Positions 1,657-18,920 of a DNA stretch of 21,863 nt are shown here, one piece after another. Numbering within the stretch: position 1 is the first letter of the stretch; each line of letters opens with the position of its first letter. Both the position numbers and the translations under genes were made by a program. The DNA is from Ramicandelaber brevisporus (Eukaryota; Kickxellomycota; Ramicandelaberales; Ramicandelaberaceae). The notes under the pieces were generated by a model. It ran no database searches and was not told the origin of the DNA. It saw nothing but the letters and a program-made list of their open reading frames with translations. Location: positions 8,161-30,023 of the forward strand of contig MU602862.1 of NCBI GenBank assembly GCA_025201865.1, in the 5' to 3' direction.

Positions 1657-4600
1657 TTAAGCTGAGGATTTGGCATTGGCCAGCGGCAGCATCTTATATG
1701 TCGAGATACAATTAAACAGCCAGTGTACATGTCTCAAGCAAACATTCGAATCCGGATTAACGCCAACAGTGGCAAATGGCTGGTACGCTTTCCATTGGTT
1801 CTGCGCAACGAGCACAATAACTCTGTTGGAGTAATCAATCGATTCTGAAGGCTGCGGTTCTGCTTCAGATGAACTTGTAGTGGATTTGGATGAGGATGGA
1901 CTCGGGATGCCAGCTGGCTTGCGAGTTAACACTGCACCACCTCCGAGCTTGATTAGCTGGACCAAATCATTACGCTTGATCTTTGGAGGACCAGCTGCCA
2001 CATCGCCCATAATGTAAAACTGCAGTCCGCTGAACAGCTTGTCACCATCAGGTTTGTTACGAAGAGCAGTATATGATAGTCTCGGACCACTGGTCTCGAG
2101 TAGCTGTGATGAATCGGCATCGTCATCAGTGGCTGTGGGCAGGCGAAATCCAGGCACAATTGACGAGTCGCCCTTGACCATGTAGTCAGCCTCAGGGTGC
2201 CACTTTCCATCACGAATGCTGTCAGTAAACCACTCATATCGTACAACCGCTACACCAGCTAGCACGCCGCACATGTACTTGGCAGTTCGCGTGCATCTTC
2301 CATGGTTGTTGACAGAGACCAGAACATGAGTAATTGGCTCATTTGATGACGATAGAGAAGTGGTAGATTCGCCATGGCCAGATGCTGAGCGGACCGATGA
2401 CTGTGATGAGGGAACGCCACCGGATGATGGCCGTGAGCCAGATGATGGGAAACTGTCATGCTGAGCTGCAGCCATGTTAGTGCCTGGACAATAGCCCTTT
2501 TGCAGTTTGGCGAGTGCCTCGTCCACTAGCTTCTGCTGCCAGTCTGCAAGCGCTGTGGTGAGAAACCGAACGGTATTCGAGGAAGTTACGCTACTAATAC
2601 TAGCAGGTTGCTGATGTGATCTCCACGCGACACTGTGGTCTTGAGGTGAGGATGGTGGTGGTGGTGTTAATGGAGATGATGGAAGTGGCATTTGATCACG
2701 CTCCACCGATTCAATCGCAACTGGTTCAGGCTGCGGTTGATTGATGACTGGAAGTTCCAGAGCTGGAGGCGGGACTGAGGTTGCAGACACTGGGGCTGGA
2801 GTACATGCCGTGCACTTGGCCGATCGATGTGTCTTAGCTGCACCGCACTTTGAACACTTGAATCCACTACCACTACCACTACTGCTGCTGCTTCCACCAA
2901 CAGATACTCTCGCTAGCCTCTTTGATGGTCTGCCTGAGCGCGATGGTGTAACACTGGACACTGTATCAACACTCTTTGCTTGTTGTTGCTGTTGTTGTTG
3001 TTGCTGTTGCTGTTGCTGGGGTGTCTTTTGCGGTTGAATGTCACCGAGTATATTGCCCGCACTCTTTCGACGATGAATATCTGCCAAGCTGGCTGGGCGG
3101 CCTGCACTTGACTCTATAGCACCTGTCTTGTCGCCTTCATTCATTGGCACAGCTGATGTAGCGATGGTGGCTCTACGTGAGTACACAACTGGCTTCTTGG
3201 CCAATGCTCGCGCTCGTGGATCAATGTTCTCTTTACCTGGGAAATCCTCATCATCTGCACCGTGGTAGAGATGCCCACCAGCTAACCGTTCTTGTAGCTG
3301 CTTGTCATAGCTATTTTCGGCATCAGATGGCGTTTCGGGATATGTGGATGTGCCTTGAGTATATTGGAATGGAGTTCGCGCTGCAAGAGGCTCTTCCTCA
3401 CGCGCTGCCACATCATCATCCACTGGCGCTGCAGAATTGTTCTCGATACCGTCTTCATCATCATCATCATCGTCCTCACGCCGCCGTTTCATTGGTGAAG
3501 AGACTCGTTGATCAATAAGCTCCATGCTGGGGACAGATGAGAGCTGATGCTGGAAGGATACGTTGGATGCATGTTTCCGTAACTCAGTCGTCGCCAATAC
3601 AGCAGCTTGAGCCGCAATAGATGAAATGCTGCCACTGTTCATACTCTGTAGAGCCGTCATCGATGTCGTTGCTACTGCTGTTTCTGCTGCTGCTACTGTT
3701 GTTGTCTGGATAATACCGCCACCTGCTGGCAGCATGAATCCGTCATCTTCATTCAAAATCTGTGTTTGTTCATGGAGTAAGCTATCCATTTTAGCTATTC
3801 TTTGATTCAAATGCAGGCTTTCATCACTCTGCATGGTTGAATCCAGCTGAATCGGCCGAGGTCCAGACTCATCGTGACCAGGAATAATTATAGTTGGAAG
3901 CTGATGCTCGTCTGGCAATTCTACTGTGGCTTCCCGCTCTACATCGCTCTCTGTTAGACCAGTCGGCTGTGCTACGAGTAAATGGTGACTGTGATGTTCA
4001 TCAACTGGACGGCGTGCCATCATAGAGAATCCCTCTGGAGTGGCGCCAGGCAGTGTGACTTGAGATGTGACATTGCTTGACATTAAAGGCTTTGCAGAAG
4101 GCACGTCGTCTGAATTGTCTGAACTCATACTTTCAGTAGCTGACTGCTGTTGCTGTTGCAACTGCTGAGACTGCTGCTGAGACTGTGGTTGAGACTGTTG
4201 CTGTGGTTGTGATGAATCTCGTTGCTGTCGTTCCTTGTGACGCTGCTGCTGTTGGAGTTGATTTGGTGCAGGTGAGTAAAAGTCCATTGTATCAGTTCGT
4301 GCTATTGATGGCTGCTGCTGAACCTCTCCAGGATTGACTGCGTCTCCACTTACTACAGTTGCTGTATCACTTGCAGATTGGAACGGAGAAAGCAATAAAT
4401 CGCGCAATCTTGATGCATATCGAGATATCATTGTAACTCTGTCGTTAACCTGCGTCGTGGCTGGATCAATCGGCCGACTGCAATGGCTGCAACTGTTTGA
4501 CTTGGATGCGCAATCTGAACAGCACCAGTTGCCACAGAGTTGATGAGTGACAATACTTGGTGATTCGCTGGAATTGGGTTGAGACACTCGATTACTGCAA

Positions 4601-4910
4601 CAAATGAAACAATAATAAAAAATAACAAGCAAACAAGTAAACAAGTAAACAAGTAAACGAGTAAATAAATACATATGTCAGTTGCTCAGTTTGAGAGTGA
4701 TATCGAAGGCAGTGTGTACCTGATTGCGAGGATGCTGCTGTCAATGTTGTCTGTGTTACAGGTGCTGCGGAGTTGCCGTTTCAGAATCGTCAACATCACG
4801 CTTGCCAAGCAGACAAACAGCTCGTAATAAAAACAAACCAAAGTAACATACCAGCTGGGACAACGAAGGTGGCCTTCGAGAGCAACCAGAGCTGCCTCTA
4901 CACGCTGCAT
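1657..4910 (-). CDS. BARD1-like RING / tandem-BRCT protein (two exons)
   Basis: Join exon 1 (4910-4852) and exon 2 (4594-1657), giving 998 residues. Splicing makes a TG|T cysteine codon and completes a RING: C17, C20, C40, N42 (normally His), C45, C48, C55, C58. A helical segment follows (residues 69-87, VNDRVTMISRYASRLRDLL) resembling the helix after the BARD1 RING. The middle is disordered, with Gln runs (4140-4260 and 2979-3020) and acidic and Ser tracts. A CX2CX10CX2C zinc ribbon lies at 600-617. BRCT1 starts near 695, has a low-complexity insert after its first helix, and continues from 774 with K792 in the phosphate-binding position. BRCT2 runs from about 872 and carries GGGAVLTRKP and a C-terminal LLPLA-type end, both BARD1-like. 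In animals and plants BARD1 pairs with BRCA1 as a nuclear ubiquitin ligase in homologous recombination. Animal-type ankyrin repeats are not visible. The start was chosen as the only ATG shortly before the RING; an in-frame Gln-rich N-terminal extension cannot be excluded. Confidence 0.8.
2979..3020 (-). repeat. CAG/CAA triplet run encoding polyglutamine
   Basis: On the minus strand, mixed CAA and CAG codons encode about 14 consecutive glutamines in the disordered middle of the BARD1-like protein. Codon mixing argues against a recent pure-repeat expansion. Confidence 0.85.
4595..4851 (-). other. Intron of the BARD1-like gene
   Basis: The minus-strand donor GTATGT starts at 4851 and the acceptor TTGCAG ends at 4595 after a T-rich tract (257 nt). 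Removing it joins phase-2 TG to T, making the fourth residue of the CPSC pair and restoring a full RING. Left unspliced, exon 2 would acquire a hydrophobic N-terminus (4674 downwards) that is translated intron. Confidence 0.85.
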
Positions 4911-5488: not shown

Positions 5489-6436
5489 ATGTTGAGTAAG
5501 AACGAGAACAAGACAATCGTAAAGCAGTCTAGTGACAACGTCGACATTATGACATCAAACGAGAGTGTTACGGAACCTCCACAACTGACTCTTCAACAAC
5601 CTCCATCGCGCCTTCGTCGTCTGAGCCAAGTCTTCCGCCACCGCATGACAAGCTCAGCAACAACCGCTGCTGCTCCAACAAACTCAACTTCGACGGATGA
5701 CAGTGTTCCAACGTCAACGAGCGACCTTGCCATGAGCATCCTTCGCCGTCAGAACCACGACATCATTGTTCGGCACGCTCGCCTCAAGGAGCAACTGCAC
5801 AACACAGCGGAAAATACAAAGCTACTCGGTATTGCCAACATTGGTTTAACATCGACCGTCTCAAAGCTACAAAAGGTAATGAAGACGATTCTGAAGCGTA
5901 ACCATGAGATGAAGCATCGGATGGATGCCTTGAAATGTGAATTGGTAAAGATCACAGAGCGCCATTGCGGTCGAATTGCTGCAGTGAAGACAGTGGTTGA
6001 AGGAATGGAGAATGATGCAGTGAATCTGAAGCAGCTTATTGACAGCATCGATTCCTTCAACTTTGATACCTCTACTCAATACGATTATGAGCCAGAGGAG
6101 TCAGCAGTCGAGAAGATAGCAAAAGTCGAAGGTAATTGGAAAGCTCATCCATGCTCATATATAAAGACAGCTCGAATGGATGTGATAGTGGAGTCTAACG
6201 AATGCGATATCAATGTCCCAAAGGAACCACCGCTGATTCTTCACACACCTGTGCCAGCTCAATCATCGACACAGCCATCAATACCATCTCCATCTCCATC
6301 ACCTCTATCATCCACTGAGCATCGAGCTTTAGAACGCAGCGATCGTTTGCGCCGCAGCACTCACACTGTGAATTATGCAGAGCCAGCACTTAAGGGCAAG
6401 CTCCGTAAGGGCGATAAACATACATTTGGCAACTAA
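5489..6436 (+). CDS. sgo1: Shugoshin-like protein
   Basis: A 315-residue protein. The C-terminus (residues 283-312) carries the basic shugoshin C-box, seen as RRSTHTVNYAEPALKGKLRK followed by GD, the part that binds phosphorylated histone H2A and anchors shugoshin at centromeres. Residues about 80-190 are strongly heptad-like and should form the N-terminal coiled coil that dimerises and recruits PP2A to protect cohesin during meiosis and mitosis. The linker is short and rich in Ser/Pro. The first ATG (5489) is used; a second in-frame ATG at 5549 would remove 20 unstructured residues. It is divergent from the BARD1-like gene and shares its promoter region. Its stop lies 48 bp from that of the G-patch gene. 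The family call rests mainly on the C-box; the coiled coil is compatible but not diagnostic. Confidence 0.82.
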   Translation: MLSKNENKTIVKQSSDNVDIMTSNESVTEPPQLTLQQPPSRLRRLSQVFRHRMTSSATTAAAPTNSTSTDDSVPTSTSDLAMSILRRQNHDIIVRHARLKEQLHNTAENTKLLGIANIGLTSTVSKLQKVMKTILKRNHEMKHRMDALKCELVKITERHCGRIAAVKTVVEGMENDAVNLKQLIDSIDSFNFDTSTQYDYEPEESAVEKIAKVEGNWKAHPCSYIKTARMDVIVESNECDINVPKEPPLILHTPVPAQSSTQPSIPSPSPSPLSSTEHRALERSDRLRRSTHTVNYAEPALKGKLRKGDKHTFGN

Positions 6437-7507: not shown

Positions 7508-8167
7508 CCTCTTGTCTACACTTTACGCAGTTTCGCACTGTTTCCTGTTTCCTGTTGCTCTTTTCTTTCTTTTTTCTTTTTCTTTCTTTCTTTTTTTGGA
7601 GGGTTTACCTGCCCCATCTTTACCAACCCGCTTCGAGACAGCTAGCAAGCTACAGGCGCTTGACCACCACTGGCTTGGCAGACAGTAGTAACCAGCTCGT
7701 GATTATCCTACTCCTACTCCCCTTCCTCCGAAAGCAACACCAAACTAGCTCGCCACTTTCTGCAAATCGGCCACTGTTTCGCATACTCACTTTACTTCAT
7801 CACACTATCTTTTGCATCCTTTCCTATTTCGACACTGCCTCTTTCTTTTCTTTCTTTTCTTTTCTTACTTTTACTAACTACCATGGGTATGTCCAACTAG
7901 CTGAAGACAAGCGCTCATCTTCTGCGATCTTTACTTCAGGCAGTCATTTGTCTCATTGTAATCATTGGTGTTCTTTCTTTATCATGGCGGATAGATTGAC
8001 TGACTGATTGATGAACTAAGGTATTGGGCTAACTGACACATCTGAGTTCTACTTTGATTTTGATTAAGGTATAATGCATTTGAACAGCTCAACCGCAGCG
8101 TACCTTGATTCAGCAAGCTGGAAATGTATCAAATGTGCATCAGCGACAGCTCACTAGCACTAATTCT
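7508..8167. promoter_or_regulatory. Divergent intergenic region with polypyrimidine tracts (Spp2-like / Sgf73)
   Basis: These 660 bp separate two divergent starts. Two C/T-rich tracts (7556-7598 and 7846-7875) are prominent. A short ATG frame at 7984 ends after seven codons and could be a leader peptide of the SGF73 transcript. The SGF73 frame is open upstream of its ATG to 8084, after a TGA at 8081. An upstream exon joined at AACAG (8084-8086) or CGCAG (8094-8098) is therefore possible but unproven. The 150-codon frame at 7555-8007 starts at TTG and reads pyrimidine tract; I do not accept it as a gene. Confidence 0.55.
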
Positions 8168-10531
8168 ATGGCTGATCAGCACCGCATATATGCCAATCCA
8201 GATGAGGCTAAGCGTCAAGCATTCTCTCAGATCATGCGCTTCCCACCGCCAGCACCATCCACTGCCAGCTCAGCAGCAGCAGCATTTGCAGCAGCCACTG
8301 CCACCTCTCCGTCAGCAACATCGCCAGTTAGACGTGGTCGCAACAGTATCAGCGGTCTGAATATTCCGTATATTCAGCGGGACGCACTGATCTCGCTTGC
8401 ATCAAATGACACTCTCAATATCTTTAGCAAAGAGGATTGGCAGCCACTAAGAAAACGTCCATTTGCATCAGTTGATCAAATACCACAATTAACCACTCAA
8501 TCGCTAGATCAAATGAAGTCATCAAAAACACACGGTCTATCATCGCCATCTTCATCATCATCATCATCCAAATCAAACATTCGCAAATGGCTAAATACAC
8601 TGAGTAAACCGTCATCGACACTGGCCAACCAAATTACAGCCACACCTCATTTAACATCGCCGCTGATTGTGGAATGCAAGGGATGCGGGAAAGTAGTTTT
8701 AGCAGTATCACTAAGGGCACATCATGACAACAGCTGTCCAAAGCCACCCGAGAAACCACCCAGAGGTGCCAAAGCATCAGCATCAACAACATCAGCAGCG
8801 ACAGCGGCAGCAACAGCAAGCACGGCAACAAACAGAAGGATGAGCATTTCTCAGCAGGATCAACAGACTGCGGTGAGTCAGGGTTTCAGTGATATCAATG
8901 ATGCAGCCAGTGAAGCTGCTCCACCTCCTATTAAAAAGCGAAGAACCATCAAAGCAAAGGCAGGAGCAGCAGCAACCGTCAAGTCAGAACCGCAGCCAGC
9001 GTCATCGATTGCTGAACCAGCAGACGAAGATCTCTCTGATGCGCCATTGGCTTCTCGTGATACCCAGGACCGTCCACCGCCCAATACAGAGACTCTCATG
9101 GAATCGGTGACGACTGGGCTGCTTGCATCTGGGAAGGCACCTGCTACGCCACTCACTGCCCAGAGTACAAAGAAGAAGGCTGTGAAACCTCGTCAAAGAA
9201 CGTCAAAGCCAACAAAGGGAAGTTCAGCCGGTGGTGAAGAGTCAATAGTCGCTAACACAGCTACAGCTACGGCTACAGCTACAGCTACAGCTATAGATAC
9301 AGCCACAGCTACGCCAGTTACTACAAATACTGCGGCAATTGTGGAAGAGGAGCTCATTGGAATGGATGATTCTGCATCAATTATTGCAGAGACACCTGTC
9401 CAAGCGAATGCAACTATTGGACAGGCGCACCAGGAAGGCACAATCAGCATTGCCGGATCTGAACCACCGGCAGACTCAACACCAGCACTAGCCACGAATG
9501 CACCTAAACCGGCACGATCCAGAGCAGCCAAAGCTAAGAAGCCGCCACCGGTATTGGATTTGGGCAAACACTGTGCAGTGCAAAAGAATTCAGGAGATGC
9601 ACCATGTATGAGAGCATTGACTTGCAAAGTGCATGCAATCAACGATAGAAGAGCAGTTCCTGGAAGACCTGATCAATTCGATAAGCTGCTGGCCAAATAC
9701 CAGGCTGAGACTAGAATAGCCAATGCTGAGAAGAAGAGACTGAAGAATCCTGAATTGGCTTCATCGATGACGTCTGATAAGTCAACAGCAGATGCAAGTC
9801 TGCAAACACTACAACAGCAGCATCAGCAATCACAACAGTTGGGGTTTGGGAGCGGAATGGATGGTTCTGGACTAAATTTGGCCAATGGTTTAATGATGGA
9901 TGGTGAGCCAGATAGTGACTTAGATGGACCTCCGATGACAGTTGAGCAGGAAATGGCTTTAGTATTAAGTGTAACTCGAGCGTTAATGCCGCGTCCTCTA
10001 GCATCAAAAAAGTACTATGGAGGCGCGTTGGATACTGTTTTGTCGACCACATTTACTACGCCGCTCTCTTCAGGCGCACTGCTTGGCGATAGACATCCTG
10101 TCAATGGTGACATGCTATTATACGAAAGAAGAGATCGAGTGATTGATGCATTGATTGCTGCAGCTCCGCATCGAAGTCTGGATGTATCCGCATCCAGCTC
10201 CAGCATCCCACTGCGATCAACAGCCACAGCCACCACGCAGTCAACCCTCAACCCCACTCTGAATTCAGCACCAGGCAGTGGTCCAAACTCCACAGCTATC
10301 GCTGCGCTTCATCCGATTGCGCAGTCTGTTTCCACATTGCCAATGGCCTCACTCCCTCAAGGATATCCTGCAAATCCAACACTATCAATATTCTCTACTG
10401 CGAACAATCCTCCTCCTCCTCATCCAACAGCTGCGATGCAAATGGCAAGGAATCATCAACATCCGCACCAGCAGCTGCAACAGCACGGCATGCTTGGTAG
10501 TCTGGCTGCTCCAATGGTCATGTCGCCTTAA
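8168..10531 (+). CDS. sgf73: SAGA complex subunit Sgf73 / ataxin-7 homologue (SCA7 domain)
   Basis: 787 residues from the ATG at 8168. A first zinc finger (C170, C173, H185/H186, C190; ECKGCGKVVLAVSLRAHH) matches the Sgf73/ataxin-7 N-terminal finger that sits in the Ubp8 deubiquitinase module. The SCA7 domain at about 462-515 (C469, C480, C486, H489, then RRAVPGRPDQFDKLLAKYQ) is diagnostic and is linked to nucleosome binding. A conserved-looking helical stretch follows near 590-660. Flanks are low complexity: Ser runs, Ala runs, an Ala-Thr repeat and a Gln-rich segment. The product should anchor the H2B deubiquitinase to SAGA in the nucleus. The ATG was chosen as the first in frame; the frame is open for 28 codons upstream, so an extra 5' exon is possible. 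Confidence 0.9.
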   Translation: MADQHRIYANPDEAKRQAFSQIMRFPPPAPSTASSAAAAFAAATATSPSATSPVRRGRNSISGLNIPYIQRDALISLASNDTLNIFSKEDWQPLRKRPFASVDQIPQLTTQSLDQMKSSKTHGLSSPSSSSSSSKSNIRKWLNTLSKPSSTLANQITATPHLTSPLIVECKGCGKVVLAVSLRAHHDNSCPKPPEKPPRGAKASASTTSAATAAATASTATNRRMSISQQDQQTAVSQGFSDINDAASEAAPPPIKKRRTIKAKAGAAATVKSEPQPASSIAEPADEDLSDAPLASRDTQDRPPPNTETLMESVTTGLLASGKAPATPLTAQSTKKKAVKPRQRTSKPTKGSSAGGEESIVANTATATATATATAIDTATATPVTTNTAAIVEEELIGMDDSASIIAETPVQANATIGQAHQEGTISIAGSEPPADSTPALATNAPKPARSRAAKAKKPPPVLDLGKHCAVQKNSGDAPCMRALTCKVHAINDRRAVPGRPDQFDKLLAKYQAETRIANAEKKRLKNPELASSMTSDKSTADASLQTLQQQHQQSQQLGFGSGMDGSGLNLANGLMMDGEPDSDLDGPPMTVEQEMALVLSVTRALMPRPLASKKYYGGALDTVLSTTFTTPLSSGALLGDRHPVNGDMLLYERRDRVIDALIAAAPHRSLDVSASSSSIPLRSTATATTQSTLNPTLNSAPGSGPNSTAIAALHPIAQSVSTLPMASLPQGYPANPTLSIFSTANNPPPPHPTAAMQMARNHQHPHQQLQQHGMLGSLAAPMVMSP
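9258..9312 (+). repeat. 6-bp ACAGCT-type coding repeat (Ala-Thr run)
   Basis: Imperfect ACAGCT/ACGGCT units within SGF73 encode an alternating Thr-Ala run of about eight pairs, broken by Ile-Asp. It lies in the disordered region between the N-terminal finger and the SCA7 domain. Confidence 0.8.
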
Positions 10532-17450: not shown

Positions 17451-18902
17451 TTAAATTGACATGTTAAACTTAAATGGATGTGCCTGCAGTGTGGTTAAAT
17501 TAACCAAGGCAACAGTTCCAGTCTCTGCAAAGCTCGGAACCATAACCACACGAACGACCGACTCCTTCTCCATATCCTCTCTAGGGCTCGGATTGTGCTG
17601 GCGCATGATCGATGTTGCGAACTCCGGTTGATTGCCCACAAAGTAAATGTGAGGACACTTGTCAGCTTCCAGTACAAACGGATCCGAATCGGCATATGGG
17701 AATGACAGCAGCGTATCTGGGGAAGTTGGCGACAGGTGTCTCCATAGCAAGGTATGCTCTGCAGCAACGAGACGAGAAGCCACATCGCAAGACTTGACGA
17801 TGTCATCAACGGTTTGGCCAGCAACACCGAGCAGCTGCACACCGTCAATATCGAGGTGCTGAGGGTTGGTGATGCATCGGAAATCTCTAGCAAGAGAAGC
17901 ACGTGGAAGTAAAGCGGAGTGGAGCTGCTGCTGTGGTAGAGTTACTGTGGACGGATCTGTGGCACCTGGCATGAGGTCGACACTTGTGACGGATGCCCAT
18001 TGTGAGAGGGTTTCGTCAAGTGTATCGAGAGCCTGGTCAATGTCAGTTTTATCAGTGCCATCAGGAACTGCTGGAATGTTGACTGAATTGCCGGCTACAA
18101 TGACTTTGACAATGCGAGAGCTGAGTTGATCCAATGCGCCTAGTGTACCATTTGAACCACAAATGAAGGTTGTGAGCGTTTGTAACCACAGTGCAGATTT
18201 CGCTGTTGATGAGCCAATGTTTAGACCAGACATCAGCAGTACATATTTGGCCGACATGTCAAACCCACTGTTTGACGCAATGTTATCATTATCCTCGTCG
18301 TTTGCACCATCAAACACTGGCTTGATCCCCGGGAACTGTCTCGGAATCTTTACTTGTCCAGGCAAATCCGCAAAGCACACTTCCAAAACCTCAAACGTAC
18401 TGTCTGATTCCACACCCAAGAATCCAGCAATAACTCCCGTCACCAGCAACTTGTTTTCCAGCACATCTCCACTCAGCGTGATTCTTCCCGACTCATCTTC
18501 CAATGTCAGTTCATCATCTTGGCCCGTGTACTTGTCGAGCTTAGGTGGCATTTGGACGTGCAAATTGGTTTTCAAATCGTCAATCACATTTGGCTTCTTG
18601 GCCATTTCGCGATACACTGTGCCAATTATAAAACATGGCTTCATGGTTGGAACGTTGAGCACTTTGGGGATATATGTGGCCTGCGGCGGCTGATCTTGGT
18701 TTGGTGAAGAGAGGACTTCACGCCAGTATTCGCGGCAGTTGGCAAGGACGATGGGTTTAAGGGCAGCCAGGCGGTAGTAGTACATGTGGGCGAACTGGCG
18801 CTTGTAATTACGCTCGCGTATAATGTACTTTTGGAGACGATCGCCGTCCAGAGTTGAGTCAAACTCTGCAGCTGGTCGTGCTCCAACCGATGCTGAAGTC
18901 AT
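17451..18902 (-). CDS. POLD2: DNA polymerase delta small (B) subunit
   Basis: 483 residues from the ATG at 18902, close to the length of yeast Pol31 and S. pombe Cdc1. The N-terminal helical part (FAHMYYYRLAALKP) is followed by an OB-type region with the conserved YTGQDDELTLEDESGR (near 125-140), and then the inactive phosphoesterase-like domain (YVLLMSGLNIG, HLDIDGVQLLGVAGQ, and a C-terminal strand ending HPFKFNMSI). This subunit links the catalytic subunit of polymerase delta to its other subunits for lagging-strand synthesis. The frame runs upstream only to a GTG at 19016 through a Gln run encoded by the CAA leader, so the first ATG is preferred. The 242-bp array starts 108 bp upstream of the ATG. 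Confidence 0.92.
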   Translation of the reverse strand: MTSASVGARPAAEFDSTLDGDRLQKYIIRERNYKRQFAHMYYYRLAALKPIVLANCREYWREVLSSPNQDQPPQATYIPKVLNVPTMKPCFIIGTVYREMAKKPNVIDDLKTNLHVQMPPKLDKYTGQDDELTLEDESGRITLSGDVLENKLLVTGVIAGFLGVESDSTFEVLEVCFADLPGQVKIPRQFPGIKPVFDGANDEDNDNIASNSGFDMSAKYVLLMSGLNIGSSTAKSALWLQTLTTFICGSNGTLGALDQLSSRIVKVIVAGNSVNIPAVPDGTDKTDIDQALDTLDETLSQWASVTSVDLMPGATDPSTVTLPQQQLHSALLPRASLARDFRCITNPQHLDIDGVQLLGVAGQTVDDIVKSCDVASRLVAAEHTLLWRHLSPTSPDTLLSFPYADSDPFVLEADKCPHIYFVGNQPEFATSIMRQHNPSPREDMEKESVVRVVMVPSFAETGTVALVNLTTLQAHPFKFNMSI

Positions 18903-18920
18903 TCTCTGTTGATTTGTTTT

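What the first reader, a model, noticed from the sequence alone, without database searches (positions are those of the whole stretch)
1657..4910. A BARD1-like RING/tandem-BRCT protein in a fungal genome
Seen: after splicing one 257-nt intron the gene encodes a RING at the extreme N-terminus, a BARD1-like helix after it, a long disordered middle and two BRCTs whose motifs (THVLV, T-x-K-Y, GGG-x-x-L-T-R-K-P, C-x-x-x-x-K-M-L-P-L) track BARD1 more than BRCA1. Known: BRCA1/BARD1 are described in animals, plants and some protists, and model yeasts lack them. Inference: this fungus may retain an ancestral BARD1-type partner, raising the question of whether a BRCA1-like RING partner exists elsewhere in the genome.
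Basis: partly seen in the sequence, partly recalled or inferred. Interest (0 to 1): 0.8.

Follow-up and report, generated by a model that had tools for sequence, protein, structure and literature searches.

The report
Fungal BRCA1-BARD1-type protein pair
An early-branching fungus carries not one but two relatives of the human breast-cancer proteins BRCA1 and BARD1, so this DNA-repair pair, missing from model yeasts, may survive in some fungi in a strongly altered form.

Summary
The gene is real. Splicing out 4851..4595 gives 998 aa: a RING-like N-terminus with flanking helices, a disordered middle and a C-terminal tandem BRCT. Against PDB sequences the BRCTs hit BRCA1 and BARD1 (E 2e-7 to 7e-6) and no Crb2, Brc1 or TopBP1 at E<=10. 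The RING's best four hits are BARD1, but weak (E 0.12 to 0.24). The genome is Ramicandelaber brevisporus, a Kickxellomycotina fungus. Its RING scores higher with human BRCA1 than BARD1; the window's does the opposite. BRCA2 is present. Which gene is BARD1 stays open: RING and BRCT2 favour BARD1 for the window gene, BRCT1 favours BRCA1, trees do not resolve it. No ankyrin repeats were found, and RING ligands are permuted. BRCA1 homologues in early-diverging fungi are in print (PMC11061109), and a 2014 survey hints at BARD1 in non-model fungi (PMC3969565). Best filed as a divergent BRCA1/BARD1-family pair.

The parts
1657..4910 (-). whole gene: RING-like + tandem BRCT protein, 998 aa after splicing
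4852..4910 (-). exon 1: N-terminal helix (AALVALEGHLRC, aligns with AALDRLEKLLRC of BARD1) and first CxxC up to two bases of its second Cys
4595..4851 (-). intron, 257 nt, GTATGT...TTGCAG (inferred; one CTGAC branch-like site)
1657..4594 (-). exon 2, including stop codon
4480..4862 (-). RING-like domain, residues 17-58 (interrupted by the intron): C17/C20, H37/C40, C45/C48, C55/C58
   Evidence: ligand assignment is inference
4384..4458 (-). post-RING helix, residues 66-90, aligns with BARD1 INRQLDSMIQLCSKLRNLL (helix by analogy, not predicted here)
   Evidence: alignment (to residue 87)
2803..2856 (-). CxxC-x10-CxxC motif, residues 600-617, possible small zinc ribbon in the middle part
   Evidence: read from the sequence (position); no Pfam match
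2179..2574 (-). BRCT 1 (residues about 694-825), with a low-complexity insert; T-A...K at the phosphate-binding positions
1675..2040 (-). BRCT 2 (residues 872-993), closer to human BARD1 BRCT2 than to human BRCA1 BRCT2

Best explanation
The gene encodes one half of a divergent BRCA1/BARD1-type heterodimer of Ramicandelaber brevisporus, most likely the BARD1 half; the gene at G000:C142 (L028:2836-5688, minus) is the other, BRCA1-like half. Shown here: both genes have an N-terminal RING or RING-like domain and C-terminal BRCTs whose best matches among solved structures are BRCA1 and BARD1. The C142 gene is the only other hit of the window BRCTs in the genome, and a BRCA2 gene is present. Inferred: helices around the two RINGs pair into a heterodimer; the tandem BRCTs bind phosphorylated partners or ubiquitin-marked chromatin at breaks; the complex promotes BRCA2/RAD51 recombination. 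Also inferred: ubiquitin-ligase activity is weak or uses a changed E2 contact. The residue at the E2-contact position of BRCA1 (Ile26, recalled) is Gly in the partner and Ser in the window protein, and the partner has Asn at the Lys65 position (recalled). The window RING has permuted ligands.
For: BRCT pair: the 24 PDB sequences at E<=1e-3 are all BRCA1 or BARD1. Controls: the genome's own C16 gene (Tudor-like region by eye + BRCTs) hits 53BP1 first, and the multi-BRCT gene on C140 hits MDC1, PTIP and Brc1, so the test separates families. Bits of the window BRCT pair as query: 53.6 AtBRCA1, 47.2 AtBARD1 (both typed from recall), 43.2 L028, 35.1 hBRCA1, 31.4 hBARD1, against 16.1 and 15.1 for the own-genome C16 and C140 genes. 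Genome search with the window BRCTs: besides itself, only the C142 gene, both BRCTs (E 2.4e-4 and 1.5e-3). Of 64 RING matches of PF13923, only the one on C142 lies in a frame that also holds a BRCT match. RING partition with human references: window 18.9 bits BARD1, 7.6 BRCA1; L028 with loop cut 24.5 BRCA1, 16.1 BARD1. Human quartet, RING+BRCT: window+BARD1 / L028+BRCA1 is best (RELL 0.81), swapped assignment AU 0.03. BRCA2 OB1 domain E 8.5e-27.
Against: RING match of the window to BARD1 is not significant on its own (E 0.12), and it scores only 0.1 to 1.2 bits with Arabidopsis BARD1. The L028 RING scores as well with AtBARD1 (25 bits) as with hBRCA1 (23-24). BRCT1 of the window is nearer BRCA1; the L028 BRCT pair is nearer hBARD1 (43.4) than hBRCA1 (36.8). 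The RING-only quartet prefers window+L028. The six-taxon BRCT tree resolves nothing; in the eight-taxon tree the free best topology puts the window next to C140 and C16 inside the group, with weak support. No ankyrin repeats. BRE, PALB2 and BRCC36_C models found nothing, though for BRE and PALB2 no control genome rang either, so that is no proof of absence. Structure models failed (pLDDT 31.5 and 30.1).
Confidence: 0.65

Rival explanations
1. The two fungal genes arose by a duplication within the fungal line from one BRCA1/BARD1-like gene, so neither is an orthologue of BARD1 or BRCA1 alone.
For: The C142 gene is the only other hit of the window BRCTs in the genome. Window-L028 BRCT score is 43.2-46.1 bits, above the window's scores to human proteins (31.4-35.3) and about equal to L028's best (39.8-43.4 with hBARD1). 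RING-only quartet best tree is window+L028 (RELL 0.74), and in the six-taxon tree it is as good as the best (AU 0.58).
Against: The two RINGs score only about 4 bits with each other, and each scores more with a different human RING. Full quartet prefers the BARD1/BRCA1 split (RELL 0.81 against 0.18).
Confidence: 0.2
2. Labels are the other way round: the window gene is the BRCA1 orthologue and the C142 gene the BARD1 orthologue.
For: Window BRCT1 scores 37.4 bits with BRCA1 against 13.2 with BARD1. L028 BRCT pair scores 43.4 with BARD1, 36.8 with BRCA1, and BARD1 tops its PDB list. L028 RING scores 25 bits with AtBARD1.
Against: Scores with human RINGs and BRCT2 point the other way. Quartet AU 0.03 for this topology, though 0.27 in the six-taxon tree.
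Confidence: 0.1
3. The N-terminal RING is an artefact of the assumed splice; the gene is a BRCT protein with an unrelated N-terminus.
For: No Pfam RING match; RING E 0.12; no RNA; frame open upstream of M1.
Against: Canonical splice sites; a neighbouring gene that looks like a Rieske protein seems to use a GTATGT donor too (read by eye); the junction itself completes the CxxC. The match to BARD1 runs from residue 5 to 87 and beats 2000 of 2000 shuffles.
Confidence: 0.1
4. It is a fungal Crb2/53BP1, Brc1/Rtt107 or TopBP1 protein.
For: The eight-taxon tree cannot exclude pairing with the own-genome C16 or C140 genes; its free best topology puts the window beside C140.
Against: None of these families appears at E<=10; the genome holds separate candidates for them (TopBP1-like only by eye); scores are 15 to 17 bits with C16 and C140 against 31 to 54 with BRCA1/BARD1 proteins.
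Confidence: 0.03

Closest known systems
Animal BARD1
   Same: N-terminal helix-RING-helix register, C-terminal tandem BRCT, BRCT2 with LF-x-G...FY...GGG-x-x-L-x-RKP and C-terminal LPL
   Different: No ankyrin repeats found; RING ligands permuted (H-x2-C); BRCT1 nearer BRCA1; very long low-complexity middle
Plant BRCA1 and BARD1 (Arabidopsis; sequences typed from recall, unverified)
   Same: Highest BRCT scores of the references tested (53.6 and 47.2 bits), shared G-x-C-x-R-T-x-K and LF-x-GL-x-FY motifs; no ankyrin repeats (recalled)
   Different: No PHD-type domain was found by Pfam, only a CxxC-x10-CxxC motif; the window RING hardly matches the plant RINGs (0.1 to 6.1 bits)
BRCA1 (FANCS) homologues reported in early-diverging fungi, PMC11061109
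   Same: BRCA1-type gene in non-Dikarya fungi; the C142 gene would be a further case
   Different: That paper maps FA genes; BARD1 has 0 occurrences in the listing, and Ramicandelaber, Kickxellomycotina and Zoopagomycota have 0; domain layout of its BRCA1 hits was not seen
Crb2/Rad9/53BP1 and Brc1/Rtt107
   Same: Tandem BRCTs in fungal DNA-damage proteins
   Different: Separate genes that match those kinds are present in the genome; no match of the window BRCTs to them

Membership tests
BRCA1/BARD1 family (RING + tandem BRCT) | C-terminal tandem BRCT of BRCA1/BARD1 type | tested here: met
   by scores; controls; the eight-taxon tree does not resolve it
BRCA1/BARD1 family (RING + tandem BRCT) | N-terminal RING flanked by two helices | tested here: inconclusive
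   BARD1 is best in PDB but E 0.12; 0 of 2000 shuffles reach 18.9 bits; no Pfam RING; ligand order not canonical
BRCA1/BARD1 family (RING + tandem BRCT) | second RING + tandem BRCT protein in the same genome as partner | tested here: met
   C142 gene, L028:2836-5688 minus; its RING and second BRCT are below Pfam cut-offs
BARD1 as opposed to BRCA1 | groups with BARD1 in a tree | tested here: inconclusive
   best in the human quartet (RELL 0.81), unresolved with plants added
animal BARD1 | ankyrin repeats before the BRCTs | tested here: not met
   no ankyrin family at E<=1
plant BARD1/BRCA1 | PHD-type domain in the middle (recalled) | tested here: not met
   no PHD family at E<=1
BRCA1 (for the C142 gene) | C3HC4 RING with BRCA1-like post-RING helix | tested here: inconclusive
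   ligands C23 C26 C39 H41 C44 C47 C122 C125; 22-24 bits to BRCA1, 25 bits to AtBARD1, below Pfam cut-offs, TRIM25 slightly ahead in PDB
BRCA1/BARD1 family (RING + tandem BRCT) | heterodimer formation and ubiquitin ligase activity | not testable with these tools
   needs proteins
Crb2/53BP1, Brc1/Rtt107, TopBP1 | BRCTs closest to these families | tested here: not met
   none at E<=10; 15-17 bits to the own-genome C16 and C140 genes; trees inconclusive

The most novel reading that the evidence does not exclude
[quoted passage not shown] In this lineage both RINGs lost the E2-contact residues while the BRCTs and dimer helices stayed, i.e. a natural BRCA1-BARD1 complex that works in recombination without classical ligase activity.
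Probability: 0.25. Interest if true: 0.7.

Novelty: new member of a known kind. Interest (0 to 1): 0.45.

Why it matters
Whether BRCA1-BARD1 needs its ubiquitin-ligase activity for recombination is a long-standing question (recalled). A fungal pair with divergent RINGs, beside BRCA2 and away from animal-specific layers, would be a natural test and would show that the pair, not only BRCA1, survived into fungi. It also gives names and a hypothesis to two genes: one is public only as a hypothetical protein, and the other did not turn up in two protein searches.

Tried and rejected
AlphaFold models of both BRCT pairs from a two-row alignment were useless (mean pLDDT 31.5 and 30.1), so no fold search was run. 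The protein database gave no relatives of the window BRCTs (none at E<=0.01 among 2569 candidates; one fish TopBP1 at E 9.3 among 4638 candidates) and only the record itself for the C142 BRCT region (among 4718 candidates). That search needs shared 5-residue words and bounded lengths, so it does not show that relatives are lacking. Viral contigs: nothing. NCBIfam: nothing for either protein (for the window gene exon 2 only). Trees with six and eight sequences did not resolve the question. BRE, PALB2, BRCC36_C: no match, weak evidence. An intron inside the C142 RING loop was looked for; no donor of the pattern GT[AG][ATG]G was found there, and the public protein equals the unspliced frame. The names of BRCT genes in the notebook entry were provisional, made.
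Full report
Observation. The minus strand from 4910 to 1657 carries the gene as described. One search tested six donors and three acceptors around the proposed junction. The pair 4852/4594 leaves GTATGT and TTGCAG at the intron ends, 257 nt apart, and keeps the frame to the stop at 1657. The product has 998 residues. The intron has no RNA support here. A neighbouring gene that I read by eye as a Rieske protein seems to use a GTATGT donor too. The frame stays open upstream of the first Met, with another Met about 56 codons earlier, so the N-terminus may be longer.

Domains. Pfam gives BRCT_2 at 872-993 (1.5e-9) and BRCT at 771-813 (2e-6), both over the curated cut-off, and no RING, ankyrin or PHD family at E<=1. 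In the first 100 residues Cys and His stand at 14 (H), 17, 20, 37 (H), 40, 44, 45, 48, 55, 57 (H), 58. Four pairs can be read as C17/C20, H37/C40, C45/C48, C55/C58, which keeps eight ligands but with H-x2-C in place of C-x-H; this assignment is mine. Against all PDB chains the first 91 residues find BARD1 as the best four of six hits, aligned from residue 5 to 87, at E 0.12 to 0.24. In a direct test the score to the human BARD1 RING is 18.9 bits, reached by 0 of 2000 shuffles (best 12.7); to BRCA1 it is 7.6 bits, reached by 3 of 2000.

BRCT pair. Of 32 PDB sequences at E<=10 the first 25 are BRCA1 or BARD1 (E 2.4e-7 to 1.7e-3), followed by four of MDC1 (0.12 to 0.13), two of microcephalin (0.93, 1.1) and one unrelated protein. 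As controls I searched two other BRCT genes of the same genome. The C16 gene hits 53BP1 first (1e-6), then Mdb1 and Brc1. The C140 gene hits MDC1, PTIP, Brc1 and SLF1. So the search separates families, and by score the window gene is not the genome's Crb2/53BP1 or Brc1/Rtt107 type. The remaining BRCT genes I named only by eye (RFC1, FCP1, Chs5-like, DBF4, PES1, a MAPKKK, TopBP1-like).

Organism. The C142 gene is identical over its 950 aa to a public protein named hypothetical protein GQ42DRAFT_12970 [Ramicandelaber brevisporus], on a contig of 47471 bases, the length of C142. The taxonomy puts this species in Fungi, Kickxellomycotina, Ramicandelaberales. The genome has a full alpha-aminoadipate reductase (TIGR03443, 1523 bits, cut-off 1030), as expected of a fungus (recalled). 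The window protein itself did not turn up in the protein database.

The partner. The genome search with BRCT models gave 14 and 9 matches. One frame on C142 holds a tandem BRCT at its end and, read by eye, a RING at its start; it is 950 aa from its first ATG without intron. Its BRCTs find BARD1 (2.1e-9) and BRCA1 (4.5e-8) first, then microcephalin (5e-5). Pfam finds BRCT over cut-off (2.8e-7), BRCT_2 below it (0.0047), and six RING models at 1.9e-4 to 0.037, none over its cut-off. Its RING finds TRIM25 (0.024) and BRCA1 (0.032) in PDB. The ligands C23, C26, C39, H41, C44, C47, C122, C125 fit C3HC4 with an insert of 74 residues before the last pair. With the loop cut, it scores 24.5 bits with the human BRCA1 RING (0 of 2000 shuffles) and 16.1 with BARD1 (1 of 2000). 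Searching the whole genome with the window BRCTs finds only the window gene and both BRCTs of this gene (2.4e-4, 1.5e-3); the reverse search was not run. Of 64 RING matches with PF13923, only the one on C142 shares a frame with a BRCT match. PF14835 gave four matches, none in a BRCT frame; other RING models were not run over the genome.

Which is which. Human references were typed and checked against PDB. By domain, the window gene scores: RING 18.9 BARD1 against 7.6 BRCA1; BRCT1 13.2 against 37.4; BRCT2 26.9 against 3.8. The C142 gene scores: RING 16.1 against 24.5; BRCT1 30.7 against 33.5; BRCT2 5.7 against 3.9; whole BRCT pair 43.4 against 36.8. A quartet of the four proteins gives window+BARD1 / L028+BRCA1 as best tree for BRCT (RELL 0.92) and for RING+BRCT (0.81). 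The swapped tree has AU 0.03 in the latter (0.10 for BRCT alone), the fungal-pair tree 0.20; RING alone prefers the fungal pair (0.74). With Arabidopsis proteins (typed from recall, unverified), the BRCT pair of the window scores highest with AtBRCA1 (53.6) and AtBARD1 (47.2), the two plant proteins are each other's nearest, the window RING hardly matches plant RINGs (0.1 to 6.1), and the L028 RING scores 25 bits with AtBARD1 and 19 to 21 with AtBRCA1. In the six-taxon BRCT tree all three arrangements are within one log unit. With the own-genome C16 and C140 genes added, the free tree puts the window beside C140 and C16 inside the group, at weak support, and nothing tested is excluded. The naming as BARD1 is therefore a lean, resting on the human RING and BRCT2 scores.

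Function. BRCA2 is present (PF09103, 8.5e-27). The phosphate-binding positions of BRCT1 (S-G...K in BRCA1, recalled) read T-G...K in the C142 protein and T-A...K in the window protein (alignment), so phosphopeptide binding is plausible for both. The position of BRCA1 Ile26 (recalled E2 contact) is Gly in the C142 protein and Ser in the window protein; Lys65 (recalled) corresponds to Asn in the C142 protein. I infer a heterodimer acting in recombination with BRCA2, with weak or altered ligase activity. None of this was tested. The structure predictions failed.

Literature. PMC11061109 (abstract, passages, sections 5, 11, 12 and part 1 of 13 read) mapped 40 Fanconi-related proteins on 183 fungal proteomes, lists BRCA1 as FANCS and reports BRCA1 expression in a Mortierellomycotina species, Mucor and Rhizopus; BARD1 has 0 occurrences in its text by the listing. 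[quoted passage not shown] its figure was not seen, so I cannot tell whether that means a fungal BARD1. PMC8483008 (passages) says databases hold no BRCA1 orthologues from fungi. PMC12818731 (passages) names a BRCT protein of Mucor and Rhizopus Brca1; the word RING has 0 occurrences in it. Two reviews (PMC9097270, PMC10386641; passages) did not bear on the question. Ten paper searches, seen as listings, showed no paper describing a fungal BARD1 gene beyond that remark, and none on this species with BRCA1; the library lacks most subscription journals.

Verdict. Observation confirmed, interpretation partly supported: a divergent BRCA1/BARD1-family pair in a Kickxellomycotina fungus, window gene probably the BARD1 side. 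New member of a known kind.

Noticed in passing
window 5492-6436, + strand: Divergently transcribed neighbour whose C-terminus weakly matches Shugoshin_C (1.5e-4, 22.0 bits, just under the cut-off 23.3): probably a shugoshin next to the BARD1-like gene.
   Followed up: partly
window 2803-2856, - strand: CxxC-x10-CxxC motif (residues 600-617) in the low-complexity middle of the protein; perhaps a small zinc ribbon, in the middle part where plant BRCA1/BARD1 have a PHD-type domain (recalled).
   Followed up: no
L035 (G000:C28:9001-18900): Frame of over 1900 aa with a BRCT-like N-terminus followed by what looks by eye like an SSK2-type MAPKKK with a kinase domain; a BRCT on a MAPKKK would be unusual. 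The BRCT match is weak (19.6 bits, below cut-off).
   Followed up: no
L028, residues 48-121 of the 950-aa frame: A 74-residue insert rich in serine and arginine sits between the third and fourth ligand pairs of the partner's RING.
   Followed up: partly
window 8165-10531 and 17454-18905: SCA7 zinc-binding domain protein (4.1e-19) and a DNA polymerase delta subunit B-type protein (2.1e-38), ordinary neighbours.
   Followed up: yes
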